NCBI RefSeq assembly: GCF_009708215.1
Contig: NZ_CP046175.1
Coordinates: forward strand, 5,580,001-5,644,000
Source of the DNA: Occultella kanbiaonis
Lineage (GTDB): Bacteria; Actinomycetota; Actinomycetes; Actinomycetales; Beutenbergiaceae
DNA length: 64,000 nucleotides
Direction: 5' to 3'
Shown here: positions 3,601 to 27,412 of the stretch, one piece after another
Position numbering within the stretch: position 1 is the first letter of the stretch
How the letters are laid out: the number at the start of each line of letters is the position of its first letter
Notes under the pieces: generated by a model
What the model was told of the DNA's origin: nothing
The model's database searches: none
The model's input: the letters and a program-made list of their open reading frames with translations, nothing else
Program-made: the position numbers and the translations under genes

Positions 3601-3778
3601 CCGCGACGCGTCCTGGCAACTGCTGATCGACGCGCTGCACCGGTCCGGCGCGGCCGCGGAGGCCCAGCGCGCGCAACGTGGCTACGCCCGGATGCTCGCC
3701 ACCCTCGGCGTCCCCGCGGACACTACTCGCGTCCTCGGAACTCTACCTCTGCCAGTGCCACGAACGACTCGGGGCTAG
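629..3778 (+). CDS. Large SARP/BTAD-type transcriptional regulator with N-terminal NTPase domain
   Basis: The GTG start at 629 is preferred because GGGAGG lies at 617-622; an in-frame ATG at 596 has no such site. The 1049-residue protein opens with a P-loop NTPase domain (PGTGKTT, residues 48-54) and a Walker B-like LLLVLDDVHHI near residue 155, as in MalT/LuxR-type STAND ATPases. A helical, TPR-like middle follows. From about residue 793 comes an OmpR-like winged helix (FGAFSITVRGR ... RPVHRERLAEALW), then a bacterial transcriptional activation domain to the end. Such SARP-ATPase fusions are cluster-situated regulators in actinobacteria, often near secondary-metabolite or CIS loci. It faces the CIS genes, and its last 56 bp overlap the 3' end of the convergent gene, so it is the likely regulator of that locus. 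DNA targets are inference. Confidence 0.85.
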   Translation: MAEGVRLDDLAPASLSRVPTAGGVPRPALLRALDGIRAARLGLVVAWPGTGKTTLMARWARSQGGLVAWCRLTLADADPRALIRTLAVAVRTVGTAGAPEPGAVAAPEPRAVPGTEPRAVTVPTNRPREGTSRHPAVEPTSAHGVLHLVDLLPAPLLLVLDDVHHIVGTPAEAELETLILGTGDRLRILLGSRTMPTLNLTRSEIPAPVVLTGRDLRLRIWDTDALMRSAGDEPLPLDDLVVITRETEGWAAAVRLFQRSIEGRLPAERRRAVHALAMHADYAAGYLDATVLRGLPAHQRDFLSDVAVFENLSAARVDAHRGTSTGHEDLRSVARSLPLLIDVGNGRFRMHRVLRRHLISAARAELGPVRTSAWFSGAATILRTEGATHEALRALCLAEDWRHLADLLEDVGSGSVDIQGRLWTDPLPVDRIGPPPWRTIARARAAHLEGQFDRVRNLLNDLSDSTSPAERAATRLISAGAGVWSTAPARDHADGWEHCVREASRRDPLQAARRAARQRGPGATLAEGISLLIAGDQRTATEVLHRCASDPEAPDEMALAARLAEVSMASTRPTLPTLAAIDRVYVAAEQAGHTWLARLAHGAIVSFDGDERSHRRAQQLIRHCDRIGDAWGAAIIAWSLALSCLRAGGVHPQEWDDLGLRFRTLGATSLEAWARSLYALTATAARLPDATADAVAAESFARTLAVPGALAIAYATLARSGAADGAHAAEMMHLATSTAEAEGLLARPWEWLSPTAVEAHDAEPGPGRAAEPASGAAASADPPDRSAPPSHVVAELDVHCFGAFSITVRGRAVDLGQMRPRARAVLRILALSAGRPVHRERLAEALWRDLDPAAAMHNLQVSVSTIRRCLEPGRPARSSTLLVRDGEAYTLRLRSSSRCDVVEFEAALRTANKTRNTDQVAHAAALRRALDLYAADLLPEDGPAEWVTDPRDRYRSQAAEAAAALGALELAAGNLEAATSAANRSIELNTFRDASWQLLIDALHRSGAAAEAQRAQRGYARMLATLGVPADTTRVLGTLPLPVPRTTRG

Positions 3779-5405
3779 GCGCGAAGGTGTCGACGATGGT
3801 CAGCCGCACGGCGACCACGTTCTCGGCCACGAGCTCGATGCTCTGAGCCCCGGCCCGGTCCTCGAGCACGATCTCCTCGCTCTCCTGGGCACCGGTGGAC
3901 GTGGTCGTCGTGACGGTCAGTGTCTGTGGCCGGTCCGCGGCCAGGAAGTCCTCCTGCACCGTGGACGCGCCCGGCGTGATCAGGATCCGGACCATCCGGA
4001 ACGGCTGAGCGAACGTCATGTCCACCCACTCGCCCGCCCCGGGTCCCGGCGCCGCCGGTGTCCAGGCCCGGTCGAAGGTGCCGTCGCCGAGGTTCGTCAC
4101 GGGTGTCTCGGGGCCCTGACTCGAGGCTGTGAATCCGGTCGGATTCACGGCGGCGTTGCCCTGGGCGCGGTCCAGCACGGCCTCGTAGGCACGCTCGAGC
4201 TCGGGCCGGAAGTAGAGCCCGACGGCGGTGAGCAGGCCGAGGATGACGACGGTGCTGACGAGCCTCGTCGGGAACCGGCGTCGCCGGGTCTTGGGCCGGG
4301 TACCGGCGACCGGCCCGGGCTTGGCGTCGGGGCGCAGGAGTCGCCGCCACCAGGACCTGCTCGGCTGTACCTTCGCCTCGGCGAGGCTGGTGCCACACCG
4401 GCGGCAGAACTTGCGGGTGGGCACGTTCCCGGTGCCGCAGCTGCCGCAGATGAGATCACCGGGCGCGGGCGGCGGCTCGTCCGCGGGGACCGGTCGCGGC
4501 GCCGGTCGGGGCTTTGCCGCCCCCGGCCGCACCGCCATCGGTGCGCCCGGTGCTCTCGCGGCGGGCTCGTCGGCGCCGGTCGGGCGGGGCGCGCCGGGGC
4601 GTTGCCCGACGGCGGGGGTGGAGGGGTCGGCGGAGCTCCGGGTGGTTCGGCGCCTGCGCTGCGCCGGCGGTGCGACGAGCGCGGGCGCGATCGCCGCCGC
4701 CGGCTTCGCCTGCTCGATGGTCTCGCGGGTCGGGGTGCCGTTCGGGTGCGGCTGGTCCGCCCGGCGGGCCGGGCCGTCCTCGACGCCCGACGGCGCAGCC
4801 TCGCCAGTGCCCGACGTGGCCGTCTCGCCAGTGCCCGACTGGGCAGTCTCGTTCGTGCCCGACGGCGCACCCTCGCCAATTCCCGACGTGGCCGCCTCGT
4901 TCGTGCCCGACGGCGCACCCCCGCCAATTCCCGACGTGGCCACCTCGTTCGTGGCCGGCGGTACCGCCGCCGTCGGGGCGGTCGTGGGTTCGGCGACGGG
5001 TCGCGCCGCTGGCACCGTCCCCGCGCTGGCAGCCGTGGCGGCGGTGGTCGCCGCGGCCTCCTGCCCGGTCCCGGGCGCCGGCTCGACCGCCGTGCGCTGC
5101 TCGGCCCGGGGTGCAGGCTCAGGAACCGGCTCCGGGACGGTAACCGGTGGAGGAACGGGAGCCTGTTCAGGCTCGGGCACGGGCTCCGGTTCCGGCGCGG
5201 GCTCAGGCAGCTGCACGGGCACCGGCGCGGGCTCAGGCAGCTGCACTGGCACCGGCTCCGGCACGGGCACCGGCTCGACTTCGGGCTCAGGTTCGAGTCC
5301 ATGCTCGTCGGCTGCGGGATCCTCCCACTCCAGGTAGGTGCCGCAGCCACCACAGAACTGCTCCCCGACCTCGTTGCGGGTGCCGCATTCGGGACAGATC
5401 ACCAT
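3723..5405 (-). CDS. Zinc-ribbon / disordered / TM / glycan-binding-like membrane protein of the CIS locus (CisA-like architecture)
   Basis: 560 residues. The N-terminus is a zinc ribbon (CPECGTRN...FCGGCG, residues 4-25). A long Pro/Glu/Val- then Ala/Gly/Thr-rich disordered region follows, including 16-residue repeats encoded by a 48-bp tandem duplication at 4849-4944. A second zinc ribbon (CGSCGTGN...CRRCG) lies near residues 320-340, then one membrane span (LVSTVVILGLLTAVGLYF). The last 150 residues form a beta-rich domain resembling NADase-type glycan-binding/discoidin folds. It is the last gene of the CIS block, overlapping the preceding gene by one base (TGATG). The topology recalls the membrane protein CisA reported to be needed by the Streptomyces cytoplasmic CIS; that equivalence is inference. 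Its 3' end overlaps the convergent SARP gene by 56 bp. Confidence 0.75.
   Translation of the reverse strand: MVICPECGTRNEVGEQFCGGCGTYLEWEDPAADEHGLEPEPEVEPVPVPEPVPVQLPEPAPVPVQLPEPAPEPEPVPEPEQAPVPPPVTVPEPVPEPAPRAEQRTAVEPAPGTGQEAAATTAATAASAGTVPAARPVAEPTTAPTAAVPPATNEVATSGIGGGAPSGTNEAATSGIGEGAPSGTNETAQSGTGETATSGTGEAAPSGVEDGPARRADQPHPNGTPTRETIEQAKPAAAIAPALVAPPAQRRRRTTRSSADPSTPAVGQRPGAPRPTGADEPAARAPGAPMAVRPGAAKPRPAPRPVPADEPPPAPGDLICGSCGTGNVPTRKFCRRCGTSLAEAKVQPSRSWWRRLLRPDAKPGPVAGTRPKTRRRRFPTRLVSTVVILGLLTAVGLYFRPELERAYEAVLDRAQGNAAVNPTGFTASSQGPETPVTNLGDGTFDRAWTPAAPGPGAGEWVDMTFAQPFRMVRILITPGASTVQEDFLAADRPQTLTVTTTTSTGAQESEEIVLEDRAGAQSIELVAENVVAVRLTIVDTFAPSPESFVALAEVEFRGRE
4849..4944. repeat. 48-bp near-perfect tandem duplication inside the zinc-ribbon protein gene
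   Basis: Two consecutive 48-bp units (4849-4896 and 4897-4944) differ at two positions and encode two copies of a 16-residue segment of the TNEAATSGIGEGAPSG type. Shorter, more diverged copies lie just upstream (about 4795-4848). The unit keeps the reading frame, so copy number can change only the length of the disordered linker. Confidence 0.85.
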
Positions 5406-5947
5406 CAGGCCACCTCCACGATCTCCACGACGTGTGGCACGTGCGCCGGTTTGACGTCACGCACCACGCGATCCACCCGACGCAGGTCCACGGCGTCGAC
5501 GTCGGGCACCTCCACCGTCACCGTCAGCTCCGCGGGCGAGCGCCCCGGCAGGTCCGCGCCCGGGGTCCGCGACCAGATCGTGCCGCCCGAGTCGGTCACG
5601 GTGACCTCGCCACCGGTGACCAGCCGCACGGCCAGCTCCACTCCGGCCACCGTGCCGCGACGGCGGTGGATCTGAGCGGCCTGCGCGACGATCTCGCGCT
5701 TGCGCTCGACCGACCACGAGTCGTCGACCTCGACCCCCACCCAGTCCGCGAGCCAGTCCAGGAAGTCCTCCGGCGCCAGGTGCGGGTCGATGTAGGTCCA
5801 CAACGAGTCCAGCGTGGTGAACGTCGGCGCGAGCACCTCGTCCAGCGCCCGCGTGAACAGCTGCATCATCTCGTCGTCGCCGTACACGCCGGGCAACCGG
5901 GAGCCCACCGGGACCACCGGGACGAGCCCTGGGATCATGCCGCGCAT
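5405..5947 (-). CDS. CIS baseplate protein, phage tail protein I-like
   Basis: 180 residues. The sequence MQLFTRALDEVLAPTFTTLDSL...IDPHLAPEDFLDWLADWVGV followed by an Arg-rich helix (IHRRRGTVAGVELAVRLVTG) is characteristic of the tail-protein-I domain found in eCIS clusters beside the gp6-like baseplate protein. In contractile tails this family belongs to the baseplate wedge, on the distal side of gp6. The start (ATG at 5947) is one base from the stop of the upstream baseplate gene and has a GGGGGACTGAG ribosome-binding region, so translation is probably coupled. The stop shares one base with the next start. The family is clear; the exact subunit equivalence to Afp proteins is less so. Confidence 0.8.
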   Translation of the reverse strand: MRGMIPGLVPVVPVGSRLPGVYGDDEMMQLFTRALDEVLAPTFTTLDSLWTYIDPHLAPEDFLDWLADWVGVEVDDSWSVERKREIVAQAAQIHRRRGTVAGVELAVRLVTGGEVTVTDSGGTIWSRTPGADLPGRSPAELTVTVEVPDVDAVDLRRVDRVVRDVKPAHVPHVVEIVEVA

Positions 5948-5948
5948 C

Positions 5949-7898
5949 TCAGTCCCCCGCCGTGACGCGGACCTGGTGGCGGTAGGAGAACGCCAGCGCG
6001 TGCTGGTCCAGTTCGATCCGCTGCACCGGCTCCCCGCGGCGGGACGTGATCGGGTCCGCTGCGAACAGCTTGACGTCCTCGACCAGCTCCGTGCCGGGCA
6101 GCCGCTGCAGCACCGCGTACACCTCGCCCGCCTGGACCGGCCTCCCGAACGGCCACCCCTCGCCGTCGAGCCCTCCGGTGAGCGGGTCGAAGTACCTGTT
6201 CAGGGCCCGGACGGCGTCCCGTTCGAGCACGTGCGCCGTCGTCCGTGGTCGCGGACTCAGCCGGGCGACCACGGTGACCCCCTGATAGAACGGTGGCTCC
6301 ACGAGCACGCGCACGCCCACGGGCCGCCGGTCGTCGAGGTAGGCGGCCACGGCGGCGAGGTCATCGGTGGAGGGCACCATGTCCTCGAACCGCAGCTGAC
6401 CCTCGTCGTCGGGAACCGCCGAGGGGACCACGAGCACCCGCACACCGCCGGCGTCGGCGTCCCCCACCGCGGGCACGCACCGGACCCTGGCGATGCCGGG
6501 CGCCGCCGCGCGGGCGAGCTGTTCGTAGTCCTCGGCCGTGATCGCCCGGTCCCGGGTCCGCAGCGCCAGCGGTCCACGAAGGCGCGCCTCGGCCACCGAT
6601 TCCGCCGCCACCCCGCCGAGCGCCGGGCGCCGGTTCTCGACCCGGTCCACGAACGGGACCGTGGCACGCATCACGCTGATCGTCCGGGCGCCCACGTTGC
6701 CCGCCGGGCCGCCCCCGGTGCGGTAGCTGCGCACCCGTAGGGGCGCGCCCTTGGGCGGCACCGCGCCGTACCCGCGCAGCGAGCCGTCCACCTGACGCAC
6801 CGCCGGACCGAGGTGCACCGCCCCCTGCGCCCGGTCGACCCAGAAGACGTGGTCATCCCGGCCGGCACCCGCGAACGAGTCCACCTCCGTCCAGCGCTGC
6901 CAGCCACCGCCGTCGGCCACATCGAGCTCGATCGGCGGGCCCCCCGCCACGACCGGGCGGTGCTCGAGCGGGAACACCTGCGCGGGCGTCCCCTCGGACA
7001 GGCCGAGCACCTCCTCGTCGATGGTCTCCGCGTGGACCACCGCCACCGTGCCGCCGATGGTGAAGGCACTCGCGGCGCTCATGGTCGGGGAGGCGCTGTA
7101 GAACGGGTAGCCCTCGTCCGCGGGAATCACCCGGCACCGCAGCCAGCCGGCGCGGATCCGCCCGATGACCGAGGCCGTGTGGGTCTCGGGGACATGCACC
7201 ACGACGTCCCCGGCCCGGTTCAGCCCGCCGGTCCCGTCACTGTCCAGGTCACACCCGACCCAGCGCCGTCCGTCCCAGGCCTCCCAGACCAGGGGCGGGT
7301 TCCGCGGGTCGACGCCCACACCCTGCACGTCGCACTCGAAGCGCAGCACCACCGCGCACGACGGCGCCGGCTCGTCGAGGCCGAGGAGCAGCACATCGTC
7401 CTCGACCGGCTTCCCGGAGAAGACCTCGAACCCGTCCCCGCCGAGCAGGTCATCGTCGCGTGACAGCGGTTCGCCGTCGGCGCCGTGGGTCAGCACGTGC
7501 GCGAGGCGGCGCGGCGGCACCTCCAGCGGGCGGACCGTGGCGAACCTCGTGGCCGGGTCGTCCTCCGTGCGCAGCGTCGAGACCTCGAACCCCTCCGGCA
7601 CCACGACCGTCTCCGGCTGCTCGGCGGAGAGCCAGAACGTGGCGTCCGCCGTGGCCGCCGTGGGTGGGAGCAGGCTCATCCCGAGCAGGTCCAGGAACGT
7701 GAGGTAGAGGCGGTCCGGGACCCGATTGAGCCGGTAGAACAGCTCGTCGGTCATGAACGCGACCGTCTCGATCAGCGTCACCCCGGGGTCGGACACGTTG
7801 TGGTCCGTCCACTCCGGGTTGTGCCGTTGGACCATCCGCTTGGCGTCGTCGACGAGGTCCTGGAAACGGCGGTCGTCGAGGTTCGGGGTGGGCAGCAT
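5949..7898 (-). CDS. CIS baseplate assembly protein J / gp6-like (Afp11-like)
   Basis: About 649 residues. The N-terminus MLPTPNLDDRRFQDLVDDAKRM and the stretch WTDHNVSDPGVTLIETVAFM are hallmarks of the putative baseplate assembly family of eCIS and of gp6/Baseplate_J proteins that form the ring joining spike hub and wedges. The C-terminal third (AITAEDYEQLARAAAPGIARVRC) is the usual Baseplate_J core. The ATG at 7898 is preferred: it follows the TGA of the gp25-like gene by one base and has GGAG upstream. An in-frame ATG at 7919 would overlap that gene by 20 bp and lacks a site. Confidence 0.9.
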   Translation of the reverse strand: MLPTPNLDDRRFQDLVDDAKRMVQRHNPEWTDHNVSDPGVTLIETVAFMTDELFYRLNRVPDRLYLTFLDLLGMSLLPPTAATADATFWLSAEQPETVVVPEGFEVSTLRTEDDPATRFATVRPLEVPPRRLAHVLTHGADGEPLSRDDDLLGGDGFEVFSGKPVEDDVLLLGLDEPAPSCAVVLRFECDVQGVGVDPRNPPLVWEAWDGRRWVGCDLDSDGTGGLNRAGDVVVHVPETHTASVIGRIRAGWLRCRVIPADEGYPFYSASPTMSAASAFTIGGTVAVVHAETIDEEVLGLSEGTPAQVFPLEHRPVVAGGPPIELDVADGGGWQRWTEVDSFAGAGRDDHVFWVDRAQGAVHLGPAVRQVDGSLRGYGAVPPKGAPLRVRSYRTGGGPAGNVGARTISVMRATVPFVDRVENRRPALGGVAAESVAEARLRGPLALRTRDRAITAEDYEQLARAAAPGIARVRCVPAVGDADAGGVRVLVVPSAVPDDEGQLRFEDMVPSTDDLAAVAAYLDDRRPVGVRVLVEPPFYQGVTVVARLSPRPRTTAHVLERDAVRALNRYFDPLTGGLDGEGWPFGRPVQAGEVYAVLQRLPGTELVEDVKLFAADPITSRRGEPVQRIELDQHALAFSYRHQVRVTAGD

Positions 7899-7899
7899 G

Positions 7900-8310
7900 T
7901 CAGGCTCCGGCCTCGTCATGGGTGGGGATCACGTAGAACGGGAAGACCAGGTTGCGCGGCTCGTTGGTGCCGCGGACGGAGTAGACGACGTCGACGTACA
8001 GCACGCCATCGTCGACGGCGTCGAACCGCACCACCACGTCCTCGAGGTCGATGCGTGGCTCCCACCGCTCGAGCGCGACCCGCACGACGTAGGCGATGTC
8101 GCCCGCCGTCGCGGCATTCGCCGGTGCGAAGACATAGTCGTGGATGGCGCACCCGAACTCCGGGCGCATCGGCCGTTCGCCCGGCGAGGTCGCCAGGACG
8201 AGCCGGATGGCCTCCTCGATCTCGCGGGTCTCGCGGACCAGCGCGACCCGGCCGGTCCGGTCGAACCGCAGCGGGAAGGACCAGCCGGCCCCGATGAACT
8301 CCTGACCCAT
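7900..8310 (-). CDS. GPW/gp25-family baseplate protein (Afp9-like)
   Basis: 136 residues, the usual length for the gp25 family. The conserved core EIEEAIRLVLATSPGERPMRPEFGC and the signature EPR motif (RWEPRIDL) are present; in T4 and Afp-type particles this loop contacts the sheath and transmits the baseplate signal that starts contraction. The ATG at 8310 has GGGAGG five bases upstream. The gene sits between the VgrG spike and gp6-like genes, as in most eCIS clusters. Nothing unusual is seen. Confidence 0.93.
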   Translation of the reverse strand: MGQEFIGAGWSFPLRFDRTGRVALVRETREIEEAIRLVLATSPGERPMRPEFGCAIHDYVFAPANAATAGDIAYVVRVALERWEPRIDLEDVVVRFDAVDDGVLYVDVVYSVRGTNEPRNLVFPFYVIPTHDEAGA

Positions 8311-8323: not shown

Positions 8324-10159
8324 CTAGTTGATCTTCACGAGGGCGCCGCGAATGGTCGCCATGGCGCCGGCGGAGAGCTCGGCCGAGGCCTGGCCGTTCA
8401 CCTTCACGTTGGCGGCGGTCAGCTCCGCAGTCGCCTGGCCGGCGACCTTCACGGTGGCGCCCCCGGCCTCGAACCCGGCGCTGGCCTTGAGCTTGATGTT
8501 GATCGCCTCCATGGTGATGTCACCGCCGACGCTCTTCACCGAGATGTTGTTCTGCGCCTCGACGGCCACATCCTGCTTCGCCTTGATGCGCACCGGCCCC
8601 TCGGAGAAGATCTCGATGCCCGCCTGCTGCTTCTGGGTGAGGGTGATGCGCTGCTGGCCGGCGTTCGTGCTGATCACGAGGGACTCCTCGCCGGGCTTCT
8701 CGAGGAACTCCACCAGCATCCCGGTGCGCGAGACGAAGGCCCGCCGGGTGACCTTGCCGTCGCTGCCGACGTGCTGGGACCAGGCCTTGTCCGGCCGGTC
8801 CGGGCCGTTGTACAGGCCGCCGAGGATGTACGGCGAGCCGAACTCCCCCTCGGCGAACGCGACGAGCACCTCGTCGCCGACCTCGGGCAGCACCACCGTG
8901 CCGCGCGCCGCACCCGCGCCCACCTGGACGAGGCGGGCCCACTCGCTCTCGTAGTCGCCCGAGTAGGTCGGGAGCTTGATCTTCACCCGGCCAAGGCCGT
9001 CCGGGTCCTTGAGGTTCGTCACGATCGCCGGGATCACGCCCGACCGGACCTCCGAGCGGTCCTCACCGCGGGTGACCCCGAACAGGGACCGCTCGGAGGC
9101 ACCGGAGGCGGTGAACGACGTGCGGAACCCCTCCGCGGTGAACTCGTGCCGGACCTGGGTGAGCGTGTACGTCCCCTCGAAGGTCTTCCCCACCCCGGCC
9201 ACGCGCACGGCGACCCCGGCCGCGAGCGCCGGGTTGCCGAACCCGCCGCCCTCGATCTCCGCGAACCCGCCGCTGATCCGCTCGGTGAGCGCCGCCGCCT
9301 CGCCGTCGCACTCCGCCTGGGTGCTCAGCGCGGCGCGGGAGACCACGTGGCTGGCGGCACCGACCGTCGACGCGAGCTTGGCCGGGCTGTCCGCACCGGC
9401 GAGCGTGGCCACCTGGGTCCGGGCCGTGGCCAGCCCGACGAGTTCGCGCTTCTGGCCGGGGTCCCAGCCGCGGACCTCGACCTTGGGCACCTGACCCGCG
9501 GATGTCACCGTGGCCCTCACCCACTCGAGGTCGACACCCCGCTCGATGACCAGCGGGTTGTCGCGCCCACCGGGCGCGGGCGCGGAGGAGGAGTCGGTCG
9601 GGGCGACGAAGTCCAGCGCGCCGTCGCGCACCTTCGCCCGGGCGCCGACCCGGTCCCCGATCCTGGCGAGGAAGTCCCAGTCGCTGATCCCGTCCTGGGT
9701 GATGTGCGTGAAGATCGGCTTGCGCACGTCGATCTTCCCCACGCTCAGCCCGTGCGCCCCGGCGATGGTGCTGACGATGTCGCCGGGACCGACGTTCAGG
9801 TAGGCCTTGATCCGGGTGCCGTGCTGGAGCTTGTGGGAGGCGTCCAGCCCACGCACGATCGCGAACATGCCGGTCGGCCCGAGTTCCGTCTCGAGGGCGG
9901 TGACGTCACCGGTGAGCAGCTCCGTGGGTCCGCCGGGACCGCTGGTCTGCACCTTCAGAGCGATCTTGGACCCGATCTTCAGGCCCGCCTTCTCGATCAG
10001 GTCGGCCTGCGGGTCGGCGAAGCGCAGCGAGAACACGGCCGGCAGGCGGATCGCGTCCTCGATGTGCCCGGACACCAGCGCGGCCGCGAGGAGCGGGGAC
10101 AGTGGCGACCCGTCCACAGTCACGATCAGGGCCGAGGTGAAGGTCTCAGTCGCCGGCAC
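8324..10159 (-). CDS. VgrG-like spike protein (gp27/gp5 fusion, Afp8-like)
   Basis: 611 residues. The N-terminal half is a gp27-like hub domain (ALVSGHIEDAIRLPAVFSLRFADP...). Near residue 380 an OB-fold starts (SGVIPAIVTNLKDPDGLGRVKIKLP), the phage baseplate protein V/gp5 domain with the usual WARLVQVGAG and LPEVGDEVLVAF motifs. The C-terminus is a short-period beta-helix rich in KVAGQATAELTAANVKVNG-like repeats that would form the trimeric needle. The start is a GTG at 10159 with GGGAGGTGG upstream; it overlaps the end of the LysM gene by 14 bp. The PAAR tip that should cap it is encoded at 27095-27412. Confidence 0.93.
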   Translation of the reverse strand: MPATETFTSALIVTVDGSPLSPLLAAALVSGHIEDAIRLPAVFSLRFADPQADLIEKAGLKIGSKIALKVQTSGPGGPTELLTGDVTALETELGPTGMFAIVRGLDASHKLQHGTRIKAYLNVGPGDIVSTIAGAHGLSVGKIDVRKPIFTHITQDGISDWDFLARIGDRVGARAKVRDGALDFVAPTDSSSAPAPGGRDNPLVIERGVDLEWVRATVTSAGQVPKVEVRGWDPGQKRELVGLATARTQVATLAGADSPAKLASTVGAASHVVSRAALSTQAECDGEAAALTERISGGFAEIEGGGFGNPALAAGVAVRVAGVGKTFEGTYTLTQVRHEFTAEGFRTSFTASGASERSLFGVTRGEDRSEVRSGVIPAIVTNLKDPDGLGRVKIKLPTYSGDYESEWARLVQVGAGAARGTVVLPEVGDEVLVAFAEGEFGSPYILGGLYNGPDRPDKAWSQHVGSDGKVTRRAFVSRTGMLVEFLEKPGEESLVISTNAGQQRITLTQKQQAGIEIFSEGPVRIKAKQDVAVEAQNNISVKSVGGDITMEAINIKLKASAGFEAGGATVKVAGQATAELTAANVKVNGQASAELSAGAMATIRGALVKIN

Positions 10160-10943
10160 GGGCCACCTCCCGCGCTCGCTCGCCGCCAGGCAGGACCGCG
10201 CGCGGCAGTTCGTCGGCCGCGGGCAGCAGGAGCCGGCGCCCGGGCCTGAGCCGGACCGGGTCGTCCACCCCGTTGAGCTCGGCCACCGCCCGCCACAGCG
10301 ACGGGTCCCCGTACTCGGCGTAGGCGATGCCGGCCAGCGTGTCCCCCGCCCGGAGCACGTGCTCCCGGCGCGGCACGAGCCCGCCCGAGGTGGGGTTCTG
10401 CCCGGGCTGCTCCCCGGCGATCTCGTTCAGGGTCACCGCGCACGTGGCCCGGACCGGCAACCCGGCGGACGTGAACAGGGTGTAGGTCGCCGTGACGGAC
10501 TCGATGTAGGCGAGGAACCCGGTCAGGGCGCCCCACCGGAACAGCACCCACGGAGGTGAGGCCTTCTTCTGCCCGAACGACGCCGAGGTCGGCACACAGC
10601 AGGAGAACAGCCTCTCGACCTTCTTCACCACCGAGGAGTCCAGCGTGTCCGAGGCGTCGAAGAACATCTCCAGGGTGAGCGAGGTCGGCTGCGGCCCGGT
10701 GTACTGCGGGGGTCCGGCCTTCTTGTTGCCGGTGGCGGGGCTCTCCTTCCACACCGCACGCTTCGACAGGCTCAGCTCCTTGGGGTTGAACTGGAAGTCG
10801 ATCCGGTCCAGCTTCGGCCCCGGCTTTGACAGCGATCCGTCCAGGGAGGGCTCGTGCAACTGCAGGTAGGCGTGCTCGAGCCGCGCGGGGGAGCCGGCAC
10901 CGCCGGCCCCGGCGGCCTCGAACGCTACGGGTGCGGGAGGCAT
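10146..10943 (-). CDS. LysM-containing CIS tube-hub protein (Afp7-like)
   Basis: 265 residues. The body matches the CIS tube/hub family (DRIDFQFNPKELSLSKRAVW, SLTLEMFFDASDTLDSSV). The C-terminus from about residue 195 is a LysM domain (REHVLRAGDTLAGIAYAEYG...LRPGRRLLLP). In Afp- and T4-like systems the equivalent (Afp7/gp53) joins the tube to the spike hub; the LysM fold is structural there rather than necessarily binding peptidoglycan. The ATG at 10943 is preceded by GTGAGG. It is followed directly by the VgrG gene, the standard order. Confidence 0.88.
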   Translation of the reverse strand: MPPAPVAFEAAGAGGAGSPARLEHAYLQLHEPSLDGSLSKPGPKLDRIDFQFNPKELSLSKRAVWKESPATGNKKAGPPQYTGPQPTSLTLEMFFDASDTLDSSVVKKVERLFSCCVPTSASFGQKKASPPWVLFRWGALTGFLAYIESVTATYTLFTSAGLPVRATCAVTLNEIAGEQPGQNPTSGGLVPRREHVLRAGDTLAGIAYAEYGDPSLWRAVAELNGVDDPVRLRPGRRLLLPAADELPRAVLPGGERAREVARAGD

Positions 10944-18408: not shown

Positions 18409-18490
18409 CACACACCCCTCTTCAGACGCGGAGTCCCGGGTCGGTGGACAGCGATGCTGCCACCTCCTGGCCCTGCGGCGCATGCTCGCC

Positions 18491-18510: not shown

Positions 18511-18606
18511 GCGAGGGGACCGTCCGGGCAGCCCGGCCGGGTCCCTCCGCGCCGTCGGCGGCCCGCTGGGGCACCGGGTCCCGAGCACGCCGGGCGCGGC
18601 GCGCGG

Positions 18607-20844: not shown

Positions 20845-21530
20845 CGGCGCCGCGCCCGGGCCTTCGGCGACGTCGGTGCCGACGGTTCCTCCGCGCCGGC
20901 AGGCGCGGTCACCTCGGTGCGCGGCGGCGGACTGTGCTTGCGCCGCCCGACGTCCGCTCCGCCGTCGGGCACCACATCCCGCGCATCGAGGACGAGCGGT
21001 TCGCGCACGGGCGGGCCGGCCGCCGGCCCCAGCCGCACCGCGAGCGGCGCCACCACGACCACGTCGATCGACGGCTTCAGCTCCCCGCCGAGCGCACTCC
21101 ACACGTCGGCGAAGCCACGGTCCTCCGGGGGCGGCAGCCCGACGAGCAGCTGCACGAGCGGGTCCGCGCCCGGCGGGAGCACCAGGTCATGGTCCGGGAG
21201 GACCTCGTGCTGGACGAGATGGGCGAGCACCACCTCGAGCAGCCGGTGCTCGTCCTCGGGCCGCTGCGTCCAGGCCGTGACGAGATAGGACATGCGGAAG
21301 TACCGCGGCGGGTGGGACCGGGTGACCCCCTCCGGCGTCCGCGTCTGGATGGTTCCCCGGGTCCGGCGGCGCAGGTCCTCGCGCAGGTCGTAGAGGTAGA
21401 GGTTGACGGTCGGGGCGTTGCGCCGCGCGGCCCACTCGGTGGTCGGCGCGTCGAGGACCACCTCCGCCTCGGCGCCGCCGAGCGCCGCACGCACCATCGC
21501 GCGCAGGGCGGTGTCGATCTCGGTGATCAT
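20841..21530 (-). CDS. DUF4255 / Pvc16-family tail terminator (Afp16-like)
   Basis: About 229 residues. The N-terminus (MITEIDTALRAMVRAAL) and the pattern NLYLYDLREDLRRRTRGTIQ...HPPRYFRMSYLVTAWTQRPEDEHRLLEVVL define the DUF4255/Pvc16 family that caps the tube-sheath and sets its final length. The C-terminal 45 residues are Pro/Arg/Ala-rich and probably disordered. The ATG at 21530 is chosen because AGGGGG sits six bases upstream; a GTG two codons earlier overlaps the previous stop. Tightly coupled with both neighbours. Confidence 0.9.
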   Translation of the reverse strand: MITEIDTALRAMVRAALGGAEAEVVLDAPTTEWAARRNAPTVNLYLYDLREDLRRRTRGTIQTRTPEGVTRSHPPRYFRMSYLVTAWTQRPEDEHRLLEVVLAHLVQHEVLPDHDLVLPPGADPLVQLLVGLPPPEDRGFADVWSALGGELKPSIDVVVVAPLAVRLGPAAGPPVREPLVLDARDVVPDGGADVGRRKHSPPPRTEVTAPAGAEEPSAPTSPKARARRR

Positions 21531-21532
21531 GG

Positions 21533-24500
21533 TCACCCCCTGAACAGGAAGTTGGGCGCCTGGATGGACCTCGCGACCACCAGCAGCGGGCCGCGGACCT
21601 CACCGAACGCGCCGGCCGGTGAGAGCGCGATGACGTCCCGCTCCCCGAGCAGGTCGCGGGAGACGAGCACGAGGGGGATGACCAGCCGGCCCTCCGCACT
21701 GACCACGTACGGTCCCGGATTGACCGTGATGCCCTGGCTCCAGGTCAGCGTGACCGCCTGGCCGGGTGGGAAGTCCTCGCCGTAGGCCAGGACCGCGTCG
21801 CCTGGGCGGGCCACCGACGGCAGCAGCCGGATCTCCGGCTGAAGGACCGTGACGACGGCGCGCGCGGCGTCATTCGTCGGGTCGACGTCCACGCCGGCGC
21901 CGGAGCCCGGCCCCACCGCGACGACCGCCGTGACCTCCCCGGTCTGCGCCGGCCCGATCGGGAGCAGGCCCGCGACCAGCACGGCCGACTCGCCCGGCGC
22001 GAGCGGGCCGACGGTACACACCCCGGCCCCGGTCAGGCAGGCCACCGCCGCGGGGTCGGCGACCGGTGGCGGCGTCGCCGGAGGCGTCGCCGAGACCGAC
22101 GGGGCGACGGCGGCCGGGTAGCCGGTCGTGACCGTCGCCTCCGTCACGGGCGCGGTTCCGGTGTTGGTGACCGTGTAGGTGGCGAGCACGGGCTGGCCGC
22201 CGACCCACGCCGTCGGGGCGCTCAGGGTGAGCGTGACGGCCAGGTCCACCTGGCCGTCCGTCGTACCGGGCACACCCGAGATGTTGATCGTCGTAGCGAC
22301 GGAGTTGTTGTCGACGTCCCGGTCGGGCCCACCGGGCAGGACCACGGCGGTGACCTCCGGGTTCGTGCCCGGCACCCGGCCCAGGACGGTGATGGTCAGG
22401 ATGCTCACGCCGAGCGGGCCGAGCGGCTCGGTGGGCAGACAGGTGAGCACGAGGTCATCGAGGGTGCAGCCGGTTGGCAGCTCCCCGAACTGCAGCTCCG
22501 CCGGCACTTCCAGCAGCACCCGATACGTGCCCACCGGGCGCTGCCCCTCGTTGCGGACCGTGAGGGTGAGCTCGCTGGCGCCACCGACCGGGACCACGTT
22601 CGGGCTGGCGGTCATGGTCAGGGACAGATCCACGTCGGGCTGGACGGCCGGCTCGGTCTCCGGTCCCGGCTCCTGGGTGACCTCGCGCAGCCCGGTGCCG
22701 TCGGGCGCGATGGCATAGATGCCCCAGTCGTTGGCGACACCCGCCGCTTGCCCCGCGAGGTAGATCTCGGACCCGTCCGGGGACCAGGCCGGGTCGGTCG
22801 CTGCGCTGAGGACCTCCCGGCTCGGCGTCGCAAACTCGTCGGGCCCGAACCCGACGAGCGGAGTCACCGTCGACACGGGCCCGGTCCGGTCGTCCGGGTT
22901 GAGGGTGACCAGGCCGATCCCGCCGCGAAGGTCGAACGCGTCCTCGGCAGACGAGCCGAACAAGGGAAGGTTCGCATCGGCGAGCGCGATGACGGTGCCG
23001 TCCGGAGACCACGCCGGGGAGCGTCCGGCGACAGGCACCGGGATGCACCCGGATCCTTCGCAGTCCTCGGCAAGATGACTGATCGGCGTCAGGACCGGTG
23101 CGCTGGGATCGGAGAGGTCGATCAGGGTGAGCCGCTGGTCGATCCCGCCGACGGCTGCGGTGGAGAAGGCCGTCCACCCGGTCGCCGCAAGGGTGCGGCC
23201 GTCCGGCGCCCAACTGGGCTCGGCGAAGTAGCCGTCCTCGAAGGGATCGGTGATCAGCACGGTCTCGCCCACGGAGCCGTCCGTCACGAACTGCGCCACC
23301 ATGATCTGCTCGGTGATCCCCTCGCCCGCGTAGCGACGCTCGAACGCGATCCGGGTCCCATCCGGTGACCATGCGGGGTTGACGTCCACGGCAGGTGGTC
23401 CGGACCCGTCGCCGGTGCCTGGGTCCCAGGCATAGCCGAGCGGCGCGACGGTGCTGCCGTCGGCTGCGGCGAGCATCAGGCGGCGGCCCACCTGCTCGCT
23501 CTCGGTGACGACCTCGGTGCTGAACACGAGCCAGGCGCCGTCCGGTGAATAGGCGGCGCCGCCGTCGTCCTGCTCGGTGGAGCCGGGGAACACGCGCGGG
23601 TTCGCACCGGTTGCTGCCCCGACGTCCCCGACATCGTCGGGAGTGGAGCCGGCGGTCGCCCGGAGGATCGTGTCGATCTCACCCTGCGCGGGGAACCCGG
23701 AGGGCGGGTCGGTCCAGGCCGCGTGGGACTCGGCGACGCCGGGTGTGGCGAGCACGGGGTAGGACTCACCGAGTGACGCCTCGAAGTCCTCGAACTCGAA
23801 GAGATCGATCGAGAGTTCGGTCGCGAGGACGTCGCCGTACGGGTCGTACTCGGCGCTGGTGAAGGTCAGGACCGCCTCACCGCCCTGGAAGCCTCCCTCT
23901 GTTTCCACGATGATCGGCTCGCTGCCCTGCAGGGTGGTCAGTCCCGTGTTCGCCCAGGGATCCTCGACGGAGTCCTCCCACATCTCGGGCGACCCGACGA
24001 GGTAGATCAGGGCGATCGATCCGTCGGGACGGTAACGGCTGGTCCCGAACGCAAGGACCGGAACCTGTGCCTGCTCCTCCCACATCAGCCCGGTCGCGCT
24101 GGGCTGCACGTCCGCGCCGGGATCGTCGGTGATCCGGATCGGCTCCGCGGTGGGCTGCGCCGTGTCGACGATGTAGAGGTCGCCGAGCGGATCCTCCCGC
24201 GTCGAGGAGAACGCGAGATCCCAGGAGAACCCGAGCCCCACCGGCAACCAGGTCGGCCACACGTCGTCGCCCGGACCGCGAGGCACGGTGTCGACGGTCC
24301 CACCGGTACAGGGCGGAGCCCCGATCGTGGCGATGTCGATGTGCCAGGTCTCGTCGCCGCTCCTGGTGGCGTACGCGACCCGGGTTCCGTCCGGCGAGAC
24401 CACGGGGTGGGAGACCCGCGCGTCATCGCAGGTGATCCGGATCGGGTCGCCCTCGTCGTAGCGCACGTACACATCTCCGACCGGGGACTCCGTGGTGCCC

Positions 24501-24799
24501 ACCCAAGAGGAGGCGGACGTCGCGGCGGAACTCACCGTGAACGTCGTCGAGAGCTCGCGGTCGCCCTCGGACCCGGGTACGGGTTCCACGTCGGGATCGG
24601 CGAGATACTCGACCCCGCCGGCCGAGCCGATGCTGTAGGCGGCTTCCACGAGACCCCCGGACCCCTGCGTGAACGCGACCCGCGTCGCGACCGCGTCCGG
24701 CGCCGGGAGCTGCGCCGTGACCGGGGGCATGGGCACGGCGGCGACCGCGGCCGGGGCGAGCAGCCCCAGCGCCGCGGTCACCGCCAACGTGCGTGCCAT
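21533..24799 (-). CDS. Secreted TolB-like beta-propeller protein with CARDB/DUF11-type repeats in the CIS locus
   Basis: 1088 residues. A Sec signal peptide opens it (MARTLAVTAALGLLAPAAVA). Residues about 90-740 contain repeated WD40-like PD40 motifs (SPDGTRVAYATRSGD, SPDGAWLVFSTE, SPDGTRIAFERRYAG, SPDGTVIALADA, SPDGSEIYLAG), predicting one or two TolB-like propellers. Two CARDB/DUF11-like Ig domains follow (LSLTMTASPNVVPVGG..., LAVTLTLSAPTAWVGGQ...), then a C-terminal beta domain ending QAPNFLFRG. The protein is exported, unlike the particle subunits, yet is locked into the operon by a four-base overlap with the terminator gene. It might bind envelope components during CIS action; that is inference. 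Confidence 0.8.
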   Translation of the reverse strand: MARTLAVTAALGLLAPAAVAAVPMPPVTAQLPAPDAVATRVAFTQGSGGLVEAAYSIGSAGGVEYLADPDVEPVPGSEGDRELSTTFTVSSAATSASSWVGTTESPVGDVYVRYDEGDPIRITCDDARVSHPVVSPDGTRVAYATRSGDETWHIDIATIGAPPCTGGTVDTVPRGPGDDVWPTWLPVGLGFSWDLAFSSTREDPLGDLYIVDTAQPTAEPIRITDDPGADVQPSATGLMWEEQAQVPVLAFGTSRYRPDGSIALIYLVGSPEMWEDSVEDPWANTGLTTLQGSEPIIVETEGGFQGGEAVLTFTSAEYDPYGDVLATELSIDLFEFEDFEASLGESYPVLATPGVAESHAAWTDPPSGFPAQGEIDTILRATAGSTPDDVGDVGAATGANPRVFPGSTEQDDGGAAYSPDGAWLVFSTEVVTESEQVGRRLMLAAADGSTVAPLGYAWDPGTGDGSGPPAVDVNPAWSPDGTRIAFERRYAGEGITEQIMVAQFVTDGSVGETVLITDPFEDGYFAEPSWAPDGRTLAATGWTAFSTAAVGGIDQRLTLIDLSDPSAPVLTPISHLAEDCEGSGCIPVPVAGRSPAWSPDGTVIALADANLPLFGSSAEDAFDLRGGIGLVTLNPDDRTGPVSTVTPLVGFGPDEFATPSREVLSAATDPAWSPDGSEIYLAGQAAGVANDWGIYAIAPDGTGLREVTQEPGPETEPAVQPDVDLSLTMTASPNVVPVGGASELTLTVRNEGQRPVGTYRVLLEVPAELQFGELPTGCTLDDLVLTCLPTEPLGPLGVSILTITVLGRVPGTNPEVTAVVLPGGPDRDVDNNSVATTINISGVPGTTDGQVDLAVTLTLSAPTAWVGGQPVLATYTVTNTGTAPVTEATVTTGYPAAVAPSVSATPPATPPPVADPAAVACLTGAGVCTVGPLAPGESAVLVAGLLPIGPAQTGEVTAVVAVGPGSGAGVDVDPTNDAARAVVTVLQPEIRLLPSVARPGDAVLAYGEDFPPGQAVTLTWSQGITVNPGPYVVSAEGRLVIPLVLVSRDLLGERDVIALSPAGAFGEVRGPLLVVARSIQAPNFLFRG

Positions 24800-24964: not shown

Positions 24965-25603
24965 CTAGATCAGGCCTTCGCGCAGCGCGTACGCGACGGC
25001 GTGCGACCGGTTCCGCAGCTGGAGCCGGGTCGTGACGTCATGCAGCACGTTCTTCACCGTACGCTCGGAGTAGGCCAGGTGCTGGGCGATCTCGGCCGTG
25101 TCCAGACCGTCCGCGATCAACCGCAGCACCTCGATCTCGCGGGTCGCCAGACCGGTGAAGGTCAGGCCCCGGGGACGCAGCACCTGACGCTGCAACGTCC
25201 CCACCTGGTCGAGCAGCCGCCCGAGCAGGTCCGGCGGCACGCTGCCCTCCCCGACGGCGGCGCCGGTGATCACCTGCACCAACCGGTCCGGCGTCGCCTC
25301 GCTGCGACGCACCAGACCGACGGCCCCGGCCTCGACCGACGTGACCACGTCCGTGCCGTCCAGGGTGCCGGCCACCAGGACCGGCCTGCTCAGTCCCCGA
25401 CGATGCACGACCCGGATCGTCCGGAGCGCGTCCTCATCGACTGCGTCCGTGACGACCACGACCACCCGCGCATCATCCGCCTCATCCGACCGAAGGACCC
25501 GAACCTCGGGTCGTGGCCGGAGCGCACTGACCACGCCCGCCTCCGAGATCGGATCGCGGGCACTCACCCACACTTCTACGCGTTCCATGTCCAGTTGTCC
25601 CAT
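24965..25603 (-). CDS. LuxR-family regulator with degenerate receiver domain
   Basis: 212 residues. The C-terminal 65 form a clear LuxR/NarL HTH (FTGLATREIEVLRLIADGLDTAEIAQHL, SERTVKNVLHDV). The N-terminal 120 have the alternating hydrophobic pattern of a receiver domain, but the acidic pocket is reduced (VSARDP), and after strand 3 the sequence is VVVVVTDAVDED rather than the usual DxxMP, so phosphorylation is doubtful. Such atypical receivers often bind ligands or act constitutively. It is the first gene on the minus strand of the CIS block and diverges from the membrane-protein gene at 25758, so it may control both directions. The ATG at 25603 has GGTGG close upstream; a second ATG follows at codon 6. 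Confidence 0.85.
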   Translation of the reverse strand: MGQLDMERVEVWVSARDPISEAGVVSALRPRPEVRVLRSDEADDARVVVVVTDAVDEDALRTIRVVHRRGLSRPVLVAGTLDGTDVVTSVEAGAVGLVRRSEATPDRLVQVITGAAVGEGSVPPDLLGRLLDQVGTLQRQVLRPRGLTFTGLATREIEVLRLIADGLDTAEIAQHLAYSERTVKNVLHDVTTRLQLRNRSHAVAYALREGLI

Positions 25604-25757: not shown

Positions 25758-27083
25758 ATGACGACCTTGGCGAAACTCGACTCCACGAGCCTGCGGCTGG
25801 CCGCCGGCTCGGAGGCCGTGGTGCCGCTGAGCATCCGCAACACCGGCACGATCGTGGAGGGCTACCGGATCGAGGTGCTCGGCACCCCCGGCGCCTGGGC
25901 GACGGTCGAGCCGGCCCAGATCGACGGCCTCTACCCGGACACCTCCACCACGGCCTCCATCACGTTCCGGCCACCGAAGGACGGAACGGTCCCGGCCGGC
26001 TCCTTCGACTTCGGCGTGCGCGTGGTGCCGATGGAGCACCCCGAGGAGGCCGTGATCCCCGAGGGGGTCGTCGAGGTACTGCCGTACCTGGACACGACCG
26101 CCGAGCTGGTGCCCCGCTCCTCACACGGGCGCCGCGGCGCGACGCACCAGGTCGCCGTGGACAACCGCGGGAACGTGCCGGTCACCGTGAACCTGGCCGG
26201 CACCGACGACAAGTCCCAGCTGGTGTTCAGGATCCAGCCGCCGCAGCTGGTCGTCGAGCCGGGTCAGGCCGCCTTCGCGAAGGTGCACGTCAAGCCGGTG
26301 AAGTCGTTCTGGCGTGGCCCGGACGTGACCCACCCGTTCGTGGTGTCCGCCGCCGCGGACGCGACCACCCCGGTGGCCCTGGACGGCTCGCACGTGCAGA
26401 CGGCGATGCTGCCGAAGTGGTTCTTCAAGGCCCTGCTCGCGCTGCTCGCACTACTCGCGCTGCTGGCGCTGCTCTGGTTCACGGTGCTGCGCCCGACCAT
26501 CGAGTCCGCCGCGCAGGCCGCCGTCGCCGAGGAGCGCCAGGAGGCCGTCGAGGCGGCCGAGCAGGCCCAGCAGGCAGCGGCACAGGCCCAGGAGGCCGCC
26601 GCCGGCGCGCAGACCGCCGCGGAGACGGCCGGGAACTCCGCCGCCGCGGCCGAGGAGCGCGTCGTCGAGGTCGAGGAGGCGGTGACGAACATTCTCGGCG
26701 GCTCCGAGATCGTGGTTCCGGCGAGCCTGCGCCTCCAGGTGGACACCGGGCAGGGCGCGACGGCCACCACCTCGCACACCGTGCCGGAGAACACCACGCT
26801 CCGGGTCACCGACTGGGTGTTCTCGAACCCGCAGGGCGACTTCGGCCGGGTGGTCGTCCGGCACGGGGAGACGATCGTCTTCGACCTCGCCCTGGAGAAC
26901 TTCCGCACGGTCGACTTCCACTTCCAGTCGCCGCTGGTGGTGGCCGACGGCGAGACTCTGGATGTGACGGTCACGTGCAGTCAGGTGGGGGCGCCGCCCG
27001 CCGTCGATCCGCCGGCCACCTGCGACACGGCCGTCCTGATCGGCGGCACGAACGCCACGCCCGCGCCGCCGGCCACACCCTAG
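25758..27083 (+). CDS. CIS-locus membrane protein: two Ig-like domains, TM helix, coiled coil, C-terminal beta domain
   Basis: 441 residues from the ATG at 25758. Residues 1-215 are two beta-sandwich (CARDB/NEW3-like) domains (MTTLAKLDSTSLRLAAGSEA, LSIRNTGTIVEGYRIEV, HQVAVDNRGNVPVTVNLAG). No signal peptide precedes them, so they are likely cytoplasmic. A Leu-rich membrane span follows (about 223-241), then an Ala/Glu/Gln coiled coil to about 300 and a C-terminal beta domain of 120 residues. It is usually annotated only as hydrolytic protein or hypothetical in CIS clusters; no catalytic motif is seen. It forms a two-gene unit with PAAR (11 bp gap). A role in anchoring the particle or its tip at the membrane is inference. 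Confidence 0.75.
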   Translation: MTTLAKLDSTSLRLAAGSEAVVPLSIRNTGTIVEGYRIEVLGTPGAWATVEPAQIDGLYPDTSTTASITFRPPKDGTVPAGSFDFGVRVVPMEHPEEAVIPEGVVEVLPYLDTTAELVPRSSHGRRGATHQVAVDNRGNVPVTVNLAGTDDKSQLVFRIQPPQLVVEPGQAAFAKVHVKPVKSFWRGPDVTHPFVVSAAADATTPVALDGSHVQTAMLPKWFFKALLALLALLALLALLWFTVLRPTIESAAQAAVAEERQEAVEAAEQAQQAAAQAQEAAAGAQTAAETAGNSAAAAEERVVEVEEAVTNILGGSEIVVPASLRLQVDTGQGATATTSHTVPENTTLRVTDWVFSNPQGDFGRVVVRHGETIVFDLALENFRTVDFHFQSPLVVADGETLDVTVTCSQVGAPPAVDPPATCDTAVLIGGTNATPAPPATP

Positions 27084-27094
27084 GCGGCGGCGCC

Positions 27095-27412
27095 ATGCCC
27101 ATGGGACCCGCGCTGCGCGCCGGCGACGTGGCCCTCTGCTCCCTGTTCGACGGGCCGAAGCCGCATGTGGGCGGCCCGATCACGCCGGCGGCCGCGGTCC
27201 CGACGGTGCTCATCGGAGGCATGCCCGCGGCCGTCGCGAACAACGTTCCCGGCGGGGTCGCCTGCGTCTCGCCGGCCCCGAACGGGATCGCCATGGGCTC
27301 GGTCACCGTCATGATCGGGAACTTCCCCGCCGCCCGGCTCGGCGATCTGACCATGCACGGACAACCGATCGCCCCCGGGCCCGGCTGCCTCACCGTCATC
27401 ATCGGCGGCTGA
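27095..27412 (+). CDS. PAAR-like tip protein (Afp10-like)
   Basis: 105 residues from the ATG at 27095 (AGGCGG upstream; the open frame to the left is a shadow). The sequence PMGPALRAGDVALCSLFDGPKPHVGGPI, then VLIGGMPAAVANNV and a third strand set ending LTVIIGG, is the three-fold PAAR-like fold that sharpens the VgrG needle. It is separated from its VgrG gene by 17 kb and placed on the opposite strand behind a membrane-protein gene. It carries no C-terminal extension, so it is not a fused toxin. Confidence 0.88.
   Translation: MPMGPALRAGDVALCSLFDGPKPHVGGPITPAAAVPTVLIGGMPAAVANNVPGGVACVSPAPNGIAMGSVTVMIGNFPAARLGDLTMHGQPIAPGPGCLTVIIGG

What the first reader, a model, noticed from the sequence alone, without database searches (positions are those of the whole stretch)
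3723..27412. Complete actinobacterial contractile injection system without tail fibres
Sheath, two tube proteins, LysM hub, VgrG, PAAR, gp25, gp6, tail-protein-I, AAA+ ATPase and terminator are all intact by sequence (seen). No receptor-binding fibre, holin or lysin gene is visible, while at least two membrane proteins and one secreted protein are built into the block. Known Streptomyces CIS lack fibres and act inside the producer cell; the same is inferred here. Its place next to the rpsF operon near oriC, outside Streptomyces, is notable.
Basis: partly seen in the sequence, partly recalled or inferred. Interest (0 to 1): 0.75.

Follow-up and report, generated by a model that had tools for sequence, protein, structure and literature searches.

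The report
Self-firing injection machine with candidate ruler
An unnamed actinobacterium carries a complete phage-tail-like injection machine of the kind that in Streptomyces is thought to dock on the cell's own membrane and kill the producer, and its overlooked longest gene sits about where phages keep the protein that sets tail length, a gene three papers report as missing.

Summary
The block 3723-27412 is a complete, intact contractile injection system (CIS) whose closest solved relative is the cytoplasmic type IId CIS of Streptomyces coelicolor. The gene in the fibre slot (3723-5405) has the architecture of CisA, which S. coelicolor needs for firing: zinc ribbons, one membrane helix, an outer glycan-binding-type domain. 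The other membrane gene (25758-27083) is an Sco4256-type effector beside PAAR. An eCIS-core adaptor (17704-18411) is present, but no Sle1-type cargo gene. The block lies between a MATE gene and rplI, which are neighbours in 8 of 10 relatives fetched; relatives carry such clusters elsewhere, so its place near oriC is where it landed.

New lead: ORF 11402-14956, after a tail-assembly-chaperone-like gene and a small overlapping gene, holds about the position of a phage tape measure, a gene published work calls absent here. I found 99 candidate members, mostly Actinobacteria, Chloroflexota and Deinococcota, with conserved ends and a disordered middle of variable length; 24 carry a fused eCIS core. 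A ruler role is plausible but unproven: no sequence match to known tape measures, and published particle lengths do not follow ORF length cleanly. As a system: a new member of a known kind.

The parts
629..3778 (+). BTAD-type transcriptional regulator with AAA domain (ORF open from 374); probable cluster regulator
   Evidence: PF03704, PF00486; similar gene found in 13 of 20 relatives' clusters
3723..5405 (-). CisA-like membrane adaptor: two zinc ribbons, Pro-rich linker, one TM (381-399), C-terminal NADase-type glycan-binding / F5/8C-like domain
   Evidence: (NF047619, 9.4e-25); similar protein in 18 of 20 relatives
5405..5947 (-). Cis12, baseplate wedge (Tail_P2_I)
5949..7919 (-). Cis11, baseplate J / gp6-like
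   Evidence: 746 bits to S. coelicolor Cis11 in 9gtp
7900..8310 (-). Cis9, gp25-like
8324..10159 (-). Cis8, VgrG-like spike
10146..10943 (-). Cis7, CIS_tube/GpU + LysM hub
10951..11388 (-). Cis1b, tube initiator
   Evidence: best PDB match 9gtp
11402..14956 (-). Candidate tape measure / luminal scaffold (1184 aa): conserved N- and C-terminal ends, disordered-type PAGST-rich middle with VQR/LQR motifs; no known family
14960..15118 (-). DUF6760, 52 aa; 4-nt overlap with the chaperone-like gene
   Evidence: PF20546; overlap of 4 nt in 40 of 42 other loci
15115..15564 (-). Tail-assembly-chaperone-like protein
   Evidence: PHROG 508, 1.4e-4 (Roseiflexus homologue 5.7e-7); no Pfam family; fold search gave nothing
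15564..16010 (-). Cis1a, inner tube
16024..17583 (-). Cis2, contractile sheath
   Evidence: 723 bits to S. coelicolor sheath 8bky
17704..18411 (-). eCIS-core (DUF4157) protein, Sle2-like cargo adaptor; only one in the genome
   Evidence: PF13699 1.1e-33; genome search
18607..20844 (-). Cis15, AAA+ ATPase
20841..21536 (-). Cis16, tail terminator / cap (Pvc16_N)
21533..24799 (-). Secreted-type protein (N-terminal hydrophobic segment, PD40 propeller repeats, DUF11), overlapping the cap gene
   Evidence: a similar gene, often over a small part only, in 15 of 20 relatives
24965..25603 (-). LuxR/GerE-type regulator, divergent from the effector operon
   Evidence: found in 18 of 20 relatives
25758..27083 (+). 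Sco4256-type membrane effector: two Ig/ASH-like domains, TM 226-244, helix, C-terminal beta domain
   Evidence: found in 17 of 20 relatives
27095..27412 (+). PAAR spike tip, 11 nt after the end of the effector gene
   Evidence: PF05488

Best explanation
This is a cytoplasmic type IId CIS. Particles assemble free in the cytoplasm: sheath Cis2, tube Cis1a, cap Cis16, baseplate Cis1b/7/8/9/11/12. The chaperone-like protein and DUF6760 probably help thread the long 11402-14956 protein, which lies in the tube lumen with its C-terminal helix at the tube initiator/hub. The eCIS-core protein holds cargo there. The CisA-like protein, its zinc-ribbon half inside and glycan-binding-type domain outside, docks the baseplate to the cell's own membrane under stress and triggers contraction. 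The PAAR-tipped spike and the membrane-inserting Sco4256-type effector are then driven into or through the envelope, killing or altering the producer. Shown here: gene content, order, conservation, domain architecture. Inferred from S. coelicolor: cytoplasmic location, CisA triggering, self-killing. Inferred here only: a luminal, tape-measure-like role for 11402-14956. The confidence given is for the system as a whole; the ruler part alone is 0.45.
For: Full core set. Top PDB matches are S. coelicolor CIS structures 9gtp/8bky (entries tied to S. coelicolor by the papers' data sections) for Cis11, sheath and tube initiator, hundreds of bits above other systems for the first two and about 100 for the third. 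CisA-like architecture in the published CisA position; similar protein in 18 of 20 relatives (PMC12237407 sections). Effector with Sco4256 domain order; its N-terminal 222 aa are 36% identical (2e-43) to the homologue in Streptomyces ardesiacus, whose sheath is 97% identical to that of S. coelicolor over the 226 C-terminal residues compared (PMC10066040 and PMC10020575 passages). Chaperone-like gene before the long ORF. Long-ORF family with conserved ends, dN/dS at its C-terminal end 0.21-0.36 in all three comparisons, eCIS core fused into 24 of 99 members.
Against: No expression, imaging or phenotype data for this organism. CisA itself was not available for alignment: the match is by architecture, position and homologues in other genomes. 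In S. coelicolor, the purification proteomics passage I saw names Sco4242, Sco4256 and Sco4251 as the unknowns detected, not the gene at the long-ORF position, and tube filling depended on Sco4256-4258. Published particle lengths do not rise cleanly with long-ORF length. The long ORF matches no tape measure family. In Roseiflexus and Deinococcus the long ORF comes after the tube-initiator gene, here before it. Fold search of the chaperone-like model found nothing. In the closest pair of genomes dN/dS at the N-terminal end is 0.69, not low.
Confidence: 0.72

Rival explanations
1. The particle is a true extracellular CIS released by lysis and aimed at other cells, with the CisA-like protein or the secreted propeller protein (21533-24799) acting as an unconventional receptor-binding part.
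For: PMC12923769 passages report many fibre genes in Actinobacteriota systems; a PAAR tip is present here but absent from S. coelicolor; Vladimirov et al. called Sco4242 a putative fibre.
Against: The CisA-like gene has a predicted TM helix and zinc ribbons; the propeller protein has an N-terminal hydrophobic, signal-like segment, so it would leave the cell rather than join a cytoplasmic particle; no Pfam or NCBIfam fibre family in the block (one weak PHROG coil match) and no Collar family in the genome.
Confidence: 0.12
2. ORF 11402-14956 is not a ruler but a disordered cargo or effector (Tme-like) or an eCIS-core partner that only tethers cargo to the hub; length is set otherwise.
For: 24 of 99 members carry the eCIS core, as the Tme effector does (PMC11126660 passages); motif count correlates only weakly with length (Spearman 0.29); the S. 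coelicolor group has 233-nm particles and ORFs of about 1350 aa, Calidithermus about 238 nm and 930 aa.
Against: No catalytic domain in the window protein by Pfam, NCBIfam or PHROGs; a member is present in 49 of 56 named loci with enough sequence; it follows a chaperone-like gene.
Confidence: 0.4
3. The cluster is a decayed or silent remnant.
For: No Sle1-type effector beside the eCIS-core gene (slot 17584-18606 holds only that gene).
Against: All core ORFs intact, sheath 92-99% identical in the three congeners found, and the most variable gene stays open with dN/dS below 1 throughout.
Confidence: 0.05

Closest known systems
Streptomyces coelicolor CISSc (type IId, cytoplasmic; PDB 9gtp, 8bky)
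   Same: Core proteins, CisA-type gene after Cis12, Sco4256-type membrane effector, two tube proteins, no fibre gene
   Different: PAAR present here and next to the effector gene; one effector with a non-ricin C-terminal domain where S. coelicolor has Sco4256-4258; a secreted-type propeller gene overlapping the cap gene; inserted between MATE and rplI
SLP of Streptomyces lividans with Sle1/Sle2
   Same: eCIS-core gene next to the sheath (Sle2 position)
   Different: No coiled-coil Sle1-type cargo gene in the slot here
Roseiflexus / Calidithermus / Deinococcus type IId CIS
   Same: Sheath, tube, chaperone-like gene, small gene, long ORF near the hub genes; homologous C-terminal helix on the long ORF
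   Different: Long ORF is fused to the eCIS core there, split here, and in Roseiflexus and Deinococcus follows the tube-initiator gene instead of preceding it
Phage tape measure proteins with their chaperones (P2 E/E'-T, lambda G/GT-H; recalled)
   Same: Position after tube and chaperone genes and before the hub; long, variable length
   Different: No sequence match to any tape measure family in PHROGs; PAGST-rich, disordered in composition rather than helical
Tme of Streptomyces davawensis (passages of PMC11126660)
   Same: Long, largely disordered, eCIS-core-bearing protein before baseplate genes (fused members)
   Different: No nuclease domain or TM segment found in the window protein, and no eCIS core

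Membership tests
Type IId cytoplasmic CIS | Complete tail-like core (sheath, tube, hub, spike, wedge, cap, ATPase) most similar to the S. coelicolor system | tested here: met
   PDB comparison of three proteins. No phylogeny against all eCIS subtypes was made
Type IId cytoplasmic CIS | No conventional tail fibre gene | tested here: met
   No Pfam/NCBIfam fibre family in the block; one weak PHROG coil match (E 0.0049); Collar family absent genome-wide, the only fibre family searched genome-wide
Type IId cytoplasmic CIS | Free-floating cytoplasmic particles, contraction on stress | not testable with these tools
   needs cryo-tomography
CisA | Gene just downstream of baseplate wedge genes; cytoplasmic Cys-rich part, one TM, conserved ~150-aa outer domain | tested here: met
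   TM 381-399, CxxC pairs at 4/18 and 320/334
CisA | Sequence orthology to Sco4242 | tested here: inconclusive
   Sco4242 not obtained; aligned only to homologues in other genomes (C-terminal alignment)
Sco4256-type effector | Conserved N-terminal domain, central TM, variable C-terminal domain, near the CIS | tested here: met
   Sco4256 itself not obtained
Sco4256-type effector | Toxic when expressed, needed for CIS-mediated death | not testable with these tools
   experiment needed
Sle1/Sle2 effector pair | eCIS-core protein plus adjacent coiled-coil effector before the sheath | tested here: not met
   Only the eCIS-core gene is in the 1.02-kb slot
Tape measure protein (for 11402-14956) | Long ORF after tube and chaperone genes, before hub | tested here: met
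   order; chaperone-like PHROG 508; the tube-initiator gene Cis1b lies between it and the hub
Tape measure protein (for 11402-14956) | Sequence homology to a known tape measure family | tested here: not met
   no PHROG, Pfam or NCBIfam hit
Tape measure protein (for 11402-14956) | Length correlates with particle length | tested here: inconclusive
   published lengths versus ORFs of relatives: Roseiflexus 217 nm/872-975 aa; Calidithermus 238 nm/930 aa; S. coelicolor group 233 nm/1332-1368 aa; Deinococcus 365 nm/1838-1973 aa

The most novel reading that the evidence does not exclude
ORF 11402-14956 founds an unrecognised family of tape measure / luminal scaffold proteins of type IId CIS, in a system where the tape measure has been reported missing. 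It would be a disordered chain with fixed ends and VQR 'rungs', threaded by a tail-assembly chaperone and, with the eCIS-core adaptor (fused to it in Deinococcota, Chloroflexota and some Actinobacteria), setting tube length and cargo loading.
Probability: 0.45. Interest if true: 0.72.

Novelty: new member of a known kind. Interest (0 to 1): 0.5.

Why it matters
It extends the membrane-docked, self-directed CIS to this genus with all the parts needed to test it. It also makes an open question testable: three papers say the gene that sets length is absent from the Streptomyces clusters, although S. coelicolor particles are all one length. A conserved, overlooked ORF stands about where that gene should be.

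Tried and rejected
Rejected: a special link between the CIS and rpsF/oriC. In 8 of 10 relatives fetched, the MATE gene lies within 0.15-0.9 kb of rplI (the other two, G147 and G077, gave no MATE match there), and four of those eight carry a CIS elsewhere. Rejected: mobility marks; no tRNA in the window and no useful repeat at the two edges (the only shared 11-mer belongs to a GC-rich hairpin beside rplI). Rejected: VQR enrichment as a DNA-word artefact; in the window gene the motif uses different codons, and of the VQR words 4 are in frame, none in the other sense frames and 1 antisense.

Led nowhere: fold search of the chaperone-like protein (best E 0.58, model pLDDT 73). Fold search of the effector gave only general Ig-like matches with low TM-scores, so its C-terminal activity stays unknown. 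Two fairly close named loci are labelled Cellulomonas fimi HM71 (L181) and Pseudarthrobacter sulfonivorans (L119) (eight loci printed). Sco4242, Sco4256 and the S. coelicolor gene at the long-ORF position were not obtained; no exact species with a measured particle length was obtained, so the length comparison rests on relatives.

Weak points: of 56 named loci (out of 80) with at least 5.5 kb after the sheath, 7 lack a passing long ORF, six of them Chloroflexota; in four of these a long ORF ends with a match below my threshold. One decoy short ORF scored 21.7, above the lowest accepted hit of 16.5. Among the 99 family members, L151 is only 202 aa and L099 (D. grandis) is a tube-fused form. In the 20 unnamed clusters 19 long ORFs were picked by position; whole-protein BLAST alone found 14. 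The C-terminal model was seeded with 24 members that are also counted. The eCIS-core model was seeded with five sequences, four of them counted among the 24. In one search the core-to-C-terminus distance is 137-244 aa in 20 of 24, but four outliers (313, 334, 755, 820) make its overall relative spread larger than that of the N-terminal side.


Full report
WHAT IS THERE. The window is bases 5580001-5644000 of a 5,648,255-base single-contig genome. Between 3723 and 27412 lies an unbroken CIS cluster. Pfam and NCBIfam give every core part over curated cut-offs. Against solved structures, Cis11 scores 746 bits to 9gtp and 32 or less to the two other matches. The sheath scores 723 bits to 8bky, 714 to 8bl4 and 374.5 or less to other sheaths. 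The tube initiator scores 152.6 to 9gtp and 48.7 or less elsewhere. 9gtp, 8bky and 8bl4 are S. coelicolor CIS models (data sections of PMC12237407 and PMC10066040). This places it with the cytoplasmic type IId systems; no phylogeny was made.

DISTRIBUTION. A matching sheath occurs in 44 of 297 genomes of the order at E <= 1e-20 and 58 of 394 genomes drawn from the class at E <= 1e-60 (some genomes are in both draws). I fetched 20 clusters, chosen among the higher-identity hits, and mapped the window genes on them. From Cis12 to the sheath the order is kept in 20 of 20 for the genes found; one contig ends in the middle, and BLAST missed the long ORF in five more. Regulators, cargo genes and PAAR move.

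THE FIBRE SLOT. The gene after Cis12 encodes two CxxC zinc ribbons, a Pro-rich linker, one predicted TM helix and a C-terminal domain matching NADase-type glycan-binding domains (NF047619, 9.4e-25; PF25302). A similar protein is in 18 of 20 relatives, all 18 with a TM and 16 of them with both zinc ribbons; one of the two misses has its contig end before the gene. [quoted passage not shown]). A Cys-rich, probably Zn-binding stretch before its TM was noted by Vladimirov et al. (PMC10020575, passages). So the 'missing fibre' is, by layout and position, a membrane adaptor.

THE EFFECTOR SIDE. 25758-27083 has two Ig/ASH-like domains, a TM at 226-244, a long helix and a beta domain (model mean pLDDT 87.8; fold matches general). 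Its first 222 residues match the homologue in Streptomyces ardesiacus at 36% (2e-43). In S. coelicolor such proteins (Sco4256-4258) are toxic in E. coli and needed for stress death (PMC10066040, passages). The C-terminal domain here is not the ricin type; it is shared with Micromonospora, Stackebrandtia, some Streptomyces and Chloroflexota. PAAR starts 11 nt after it. PAAR sits next to this gene in 8 of the 20 relatives, between Cis9 and Cis8 in 4, and was not found in 8, some of whose stretches end nearby. An eCIS-core protein, the only one in the genome, sits before the sheath like Sle2 of S. lividans (PMC13277306, abstract, two sections and passages). The coiled-coil Sle1 partner is absent: the sheath-AAA slot is 1.02 kb here, and by the coordinates from about 0.2 to about 10 kb in relatives.

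WHERE IT SITS. In 8 of 10 relatives fetched, a MATE gene (window -896 to 450) lies within 0.15-0.9 kb of rplI; the other two gave no MATE match there. In the window the whole cluster separates them. Two congeners have both junctions, with MATE on one side and rplI on the other; a third shows the rplI side and its contig ends before the other. No rplI match was found in the other 17 cluster stretches. Four of the eight relatives carry a CIS at another place. The cluster therefore moved as a block, and its nearness to oriC is where it landed in this genus.

THE OVERLOOKED ORF. Casu et al. 2023 and 2025 and Nagakubo et al. 2023 state that a tape measure gene is absent from the Streptomyces clusters, although all S. 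coelicolor particles analysed are one length. Here the order is sheath, tube, 15115-15564, DUF6760, 11402-14956, tube initiator, hub. The protein of 15115-15564 matches PHROG 508 'tail assembly chaperone' (1.4e-4; Roseiflexus homologue 5.7e-7). It overlaps the small DUF6760 gene by 4 nt in 40 of 42 other loci, with GGGGGAA kept at that spot in 37 of 43. In contractile phages the tape measure gene follows just such a pair (recalled). In Roseiflexus and Deinococcus the long ORF follows the tube-initiator gene instead.

The 1184-aa product has no family. In 19 of 20 relatives the slot holds a counterpart of 560-1332 aa with similar ends, picked by position; in the 20th the contig ends. A model of the last 40 residues finds the C-terminus of a long ORF in 49 of 56 named loci with enough sequence, mostly Actinobacteria with some Chloroflexota, and in Deinococcus plasmids, which also seeded it (1838 and 1973 aa). 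In the genus, dN/dS in the two more distant comparisons is 0.16-0.36 at the ends and 0.58-0.65 in the middle; in the closest pair it is 0.69 (N-terminal), 0.53 (middle) and 0.21 (C-terminal). The protein alignment has 23-45 gaps per pair, yet the frame stays open. In the 99 middles VQR occurs 584 times where composition predicts 18; 66 of 99 have three or more VQR or LQR motifs, the rest fewer.

In 24 of 99 members the eCIS core is inside the long ORF, usually 137-244 residues from the end (20 of 24). Of 45 long-ORF loci over 19 kb, 6 are fused only, 27 separate only, 1 both, 11 neither (Fisher p = 0.008; loci are related, so this p is optimistic). That links the split genes 17704-18411 and 11402-14956 functionally.

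THE LENGTH TEST is inconclusive. Published extended lengths: R. castenholzii 217 nm, C. chliarophilus 238, D. aquatilis 365 (PMC12998442, one section and passages), S. coelicolor 233. The longest particle goes with the longest ORF, but Streptomyces breaks the order.

LITERATURE. No paper that I found names this ORF as a tape measure (searches; open-access library only). One paper mentions SCO4249 (listing only).

Noticed in passing
window 15100-15140 and homologous sites in L111-L183: GGGGGAA just before the overlapping stop/start of the chaperone-like and DUF6760 genes is kept in 37 of 43 sequences, with GAA where GAG is usual. It may be only a Shine-Dalgarno site, or a slippery site as in phage chaperone genes.
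   Followed up: partly
L102:16792-20937 (Streptomyces clavuligerus plasmid): The long ORF (1381 aa) is not annotated in the record as listed; at its 3' end only a 72-codon piece is. The listing is incomplete by design, but poor annotation may be one reason the gene was called absent.
   Followed up: no
L099:15675-19454 (Deinococcus grandis plasmid): A tube-like start is fused in frame to a long-ORF-like end; the genes between are not seen there. Real fusion or assembly loss is undecided.
   Followed up: no
window -3910 to -1280 (L238:8093-10720): dnaB next to the MATE gene carries an intein with a LAGLIDADG domain.
   Followed up: no
window 21533-24799: Secreted-type propeller/DUF11 gene overlapping the cap gene; the best-matching ORFs in 15 of 20 relatives are 721-2121 aa, some similar over a small part only. 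Role unknown; possibly a surface partner of the CIS.
   Followed up: no
window 17704-18411: The eCIS-core protein has four VQR/LQR motifs, the same short motif as the long ORF.
   Followed up: partly
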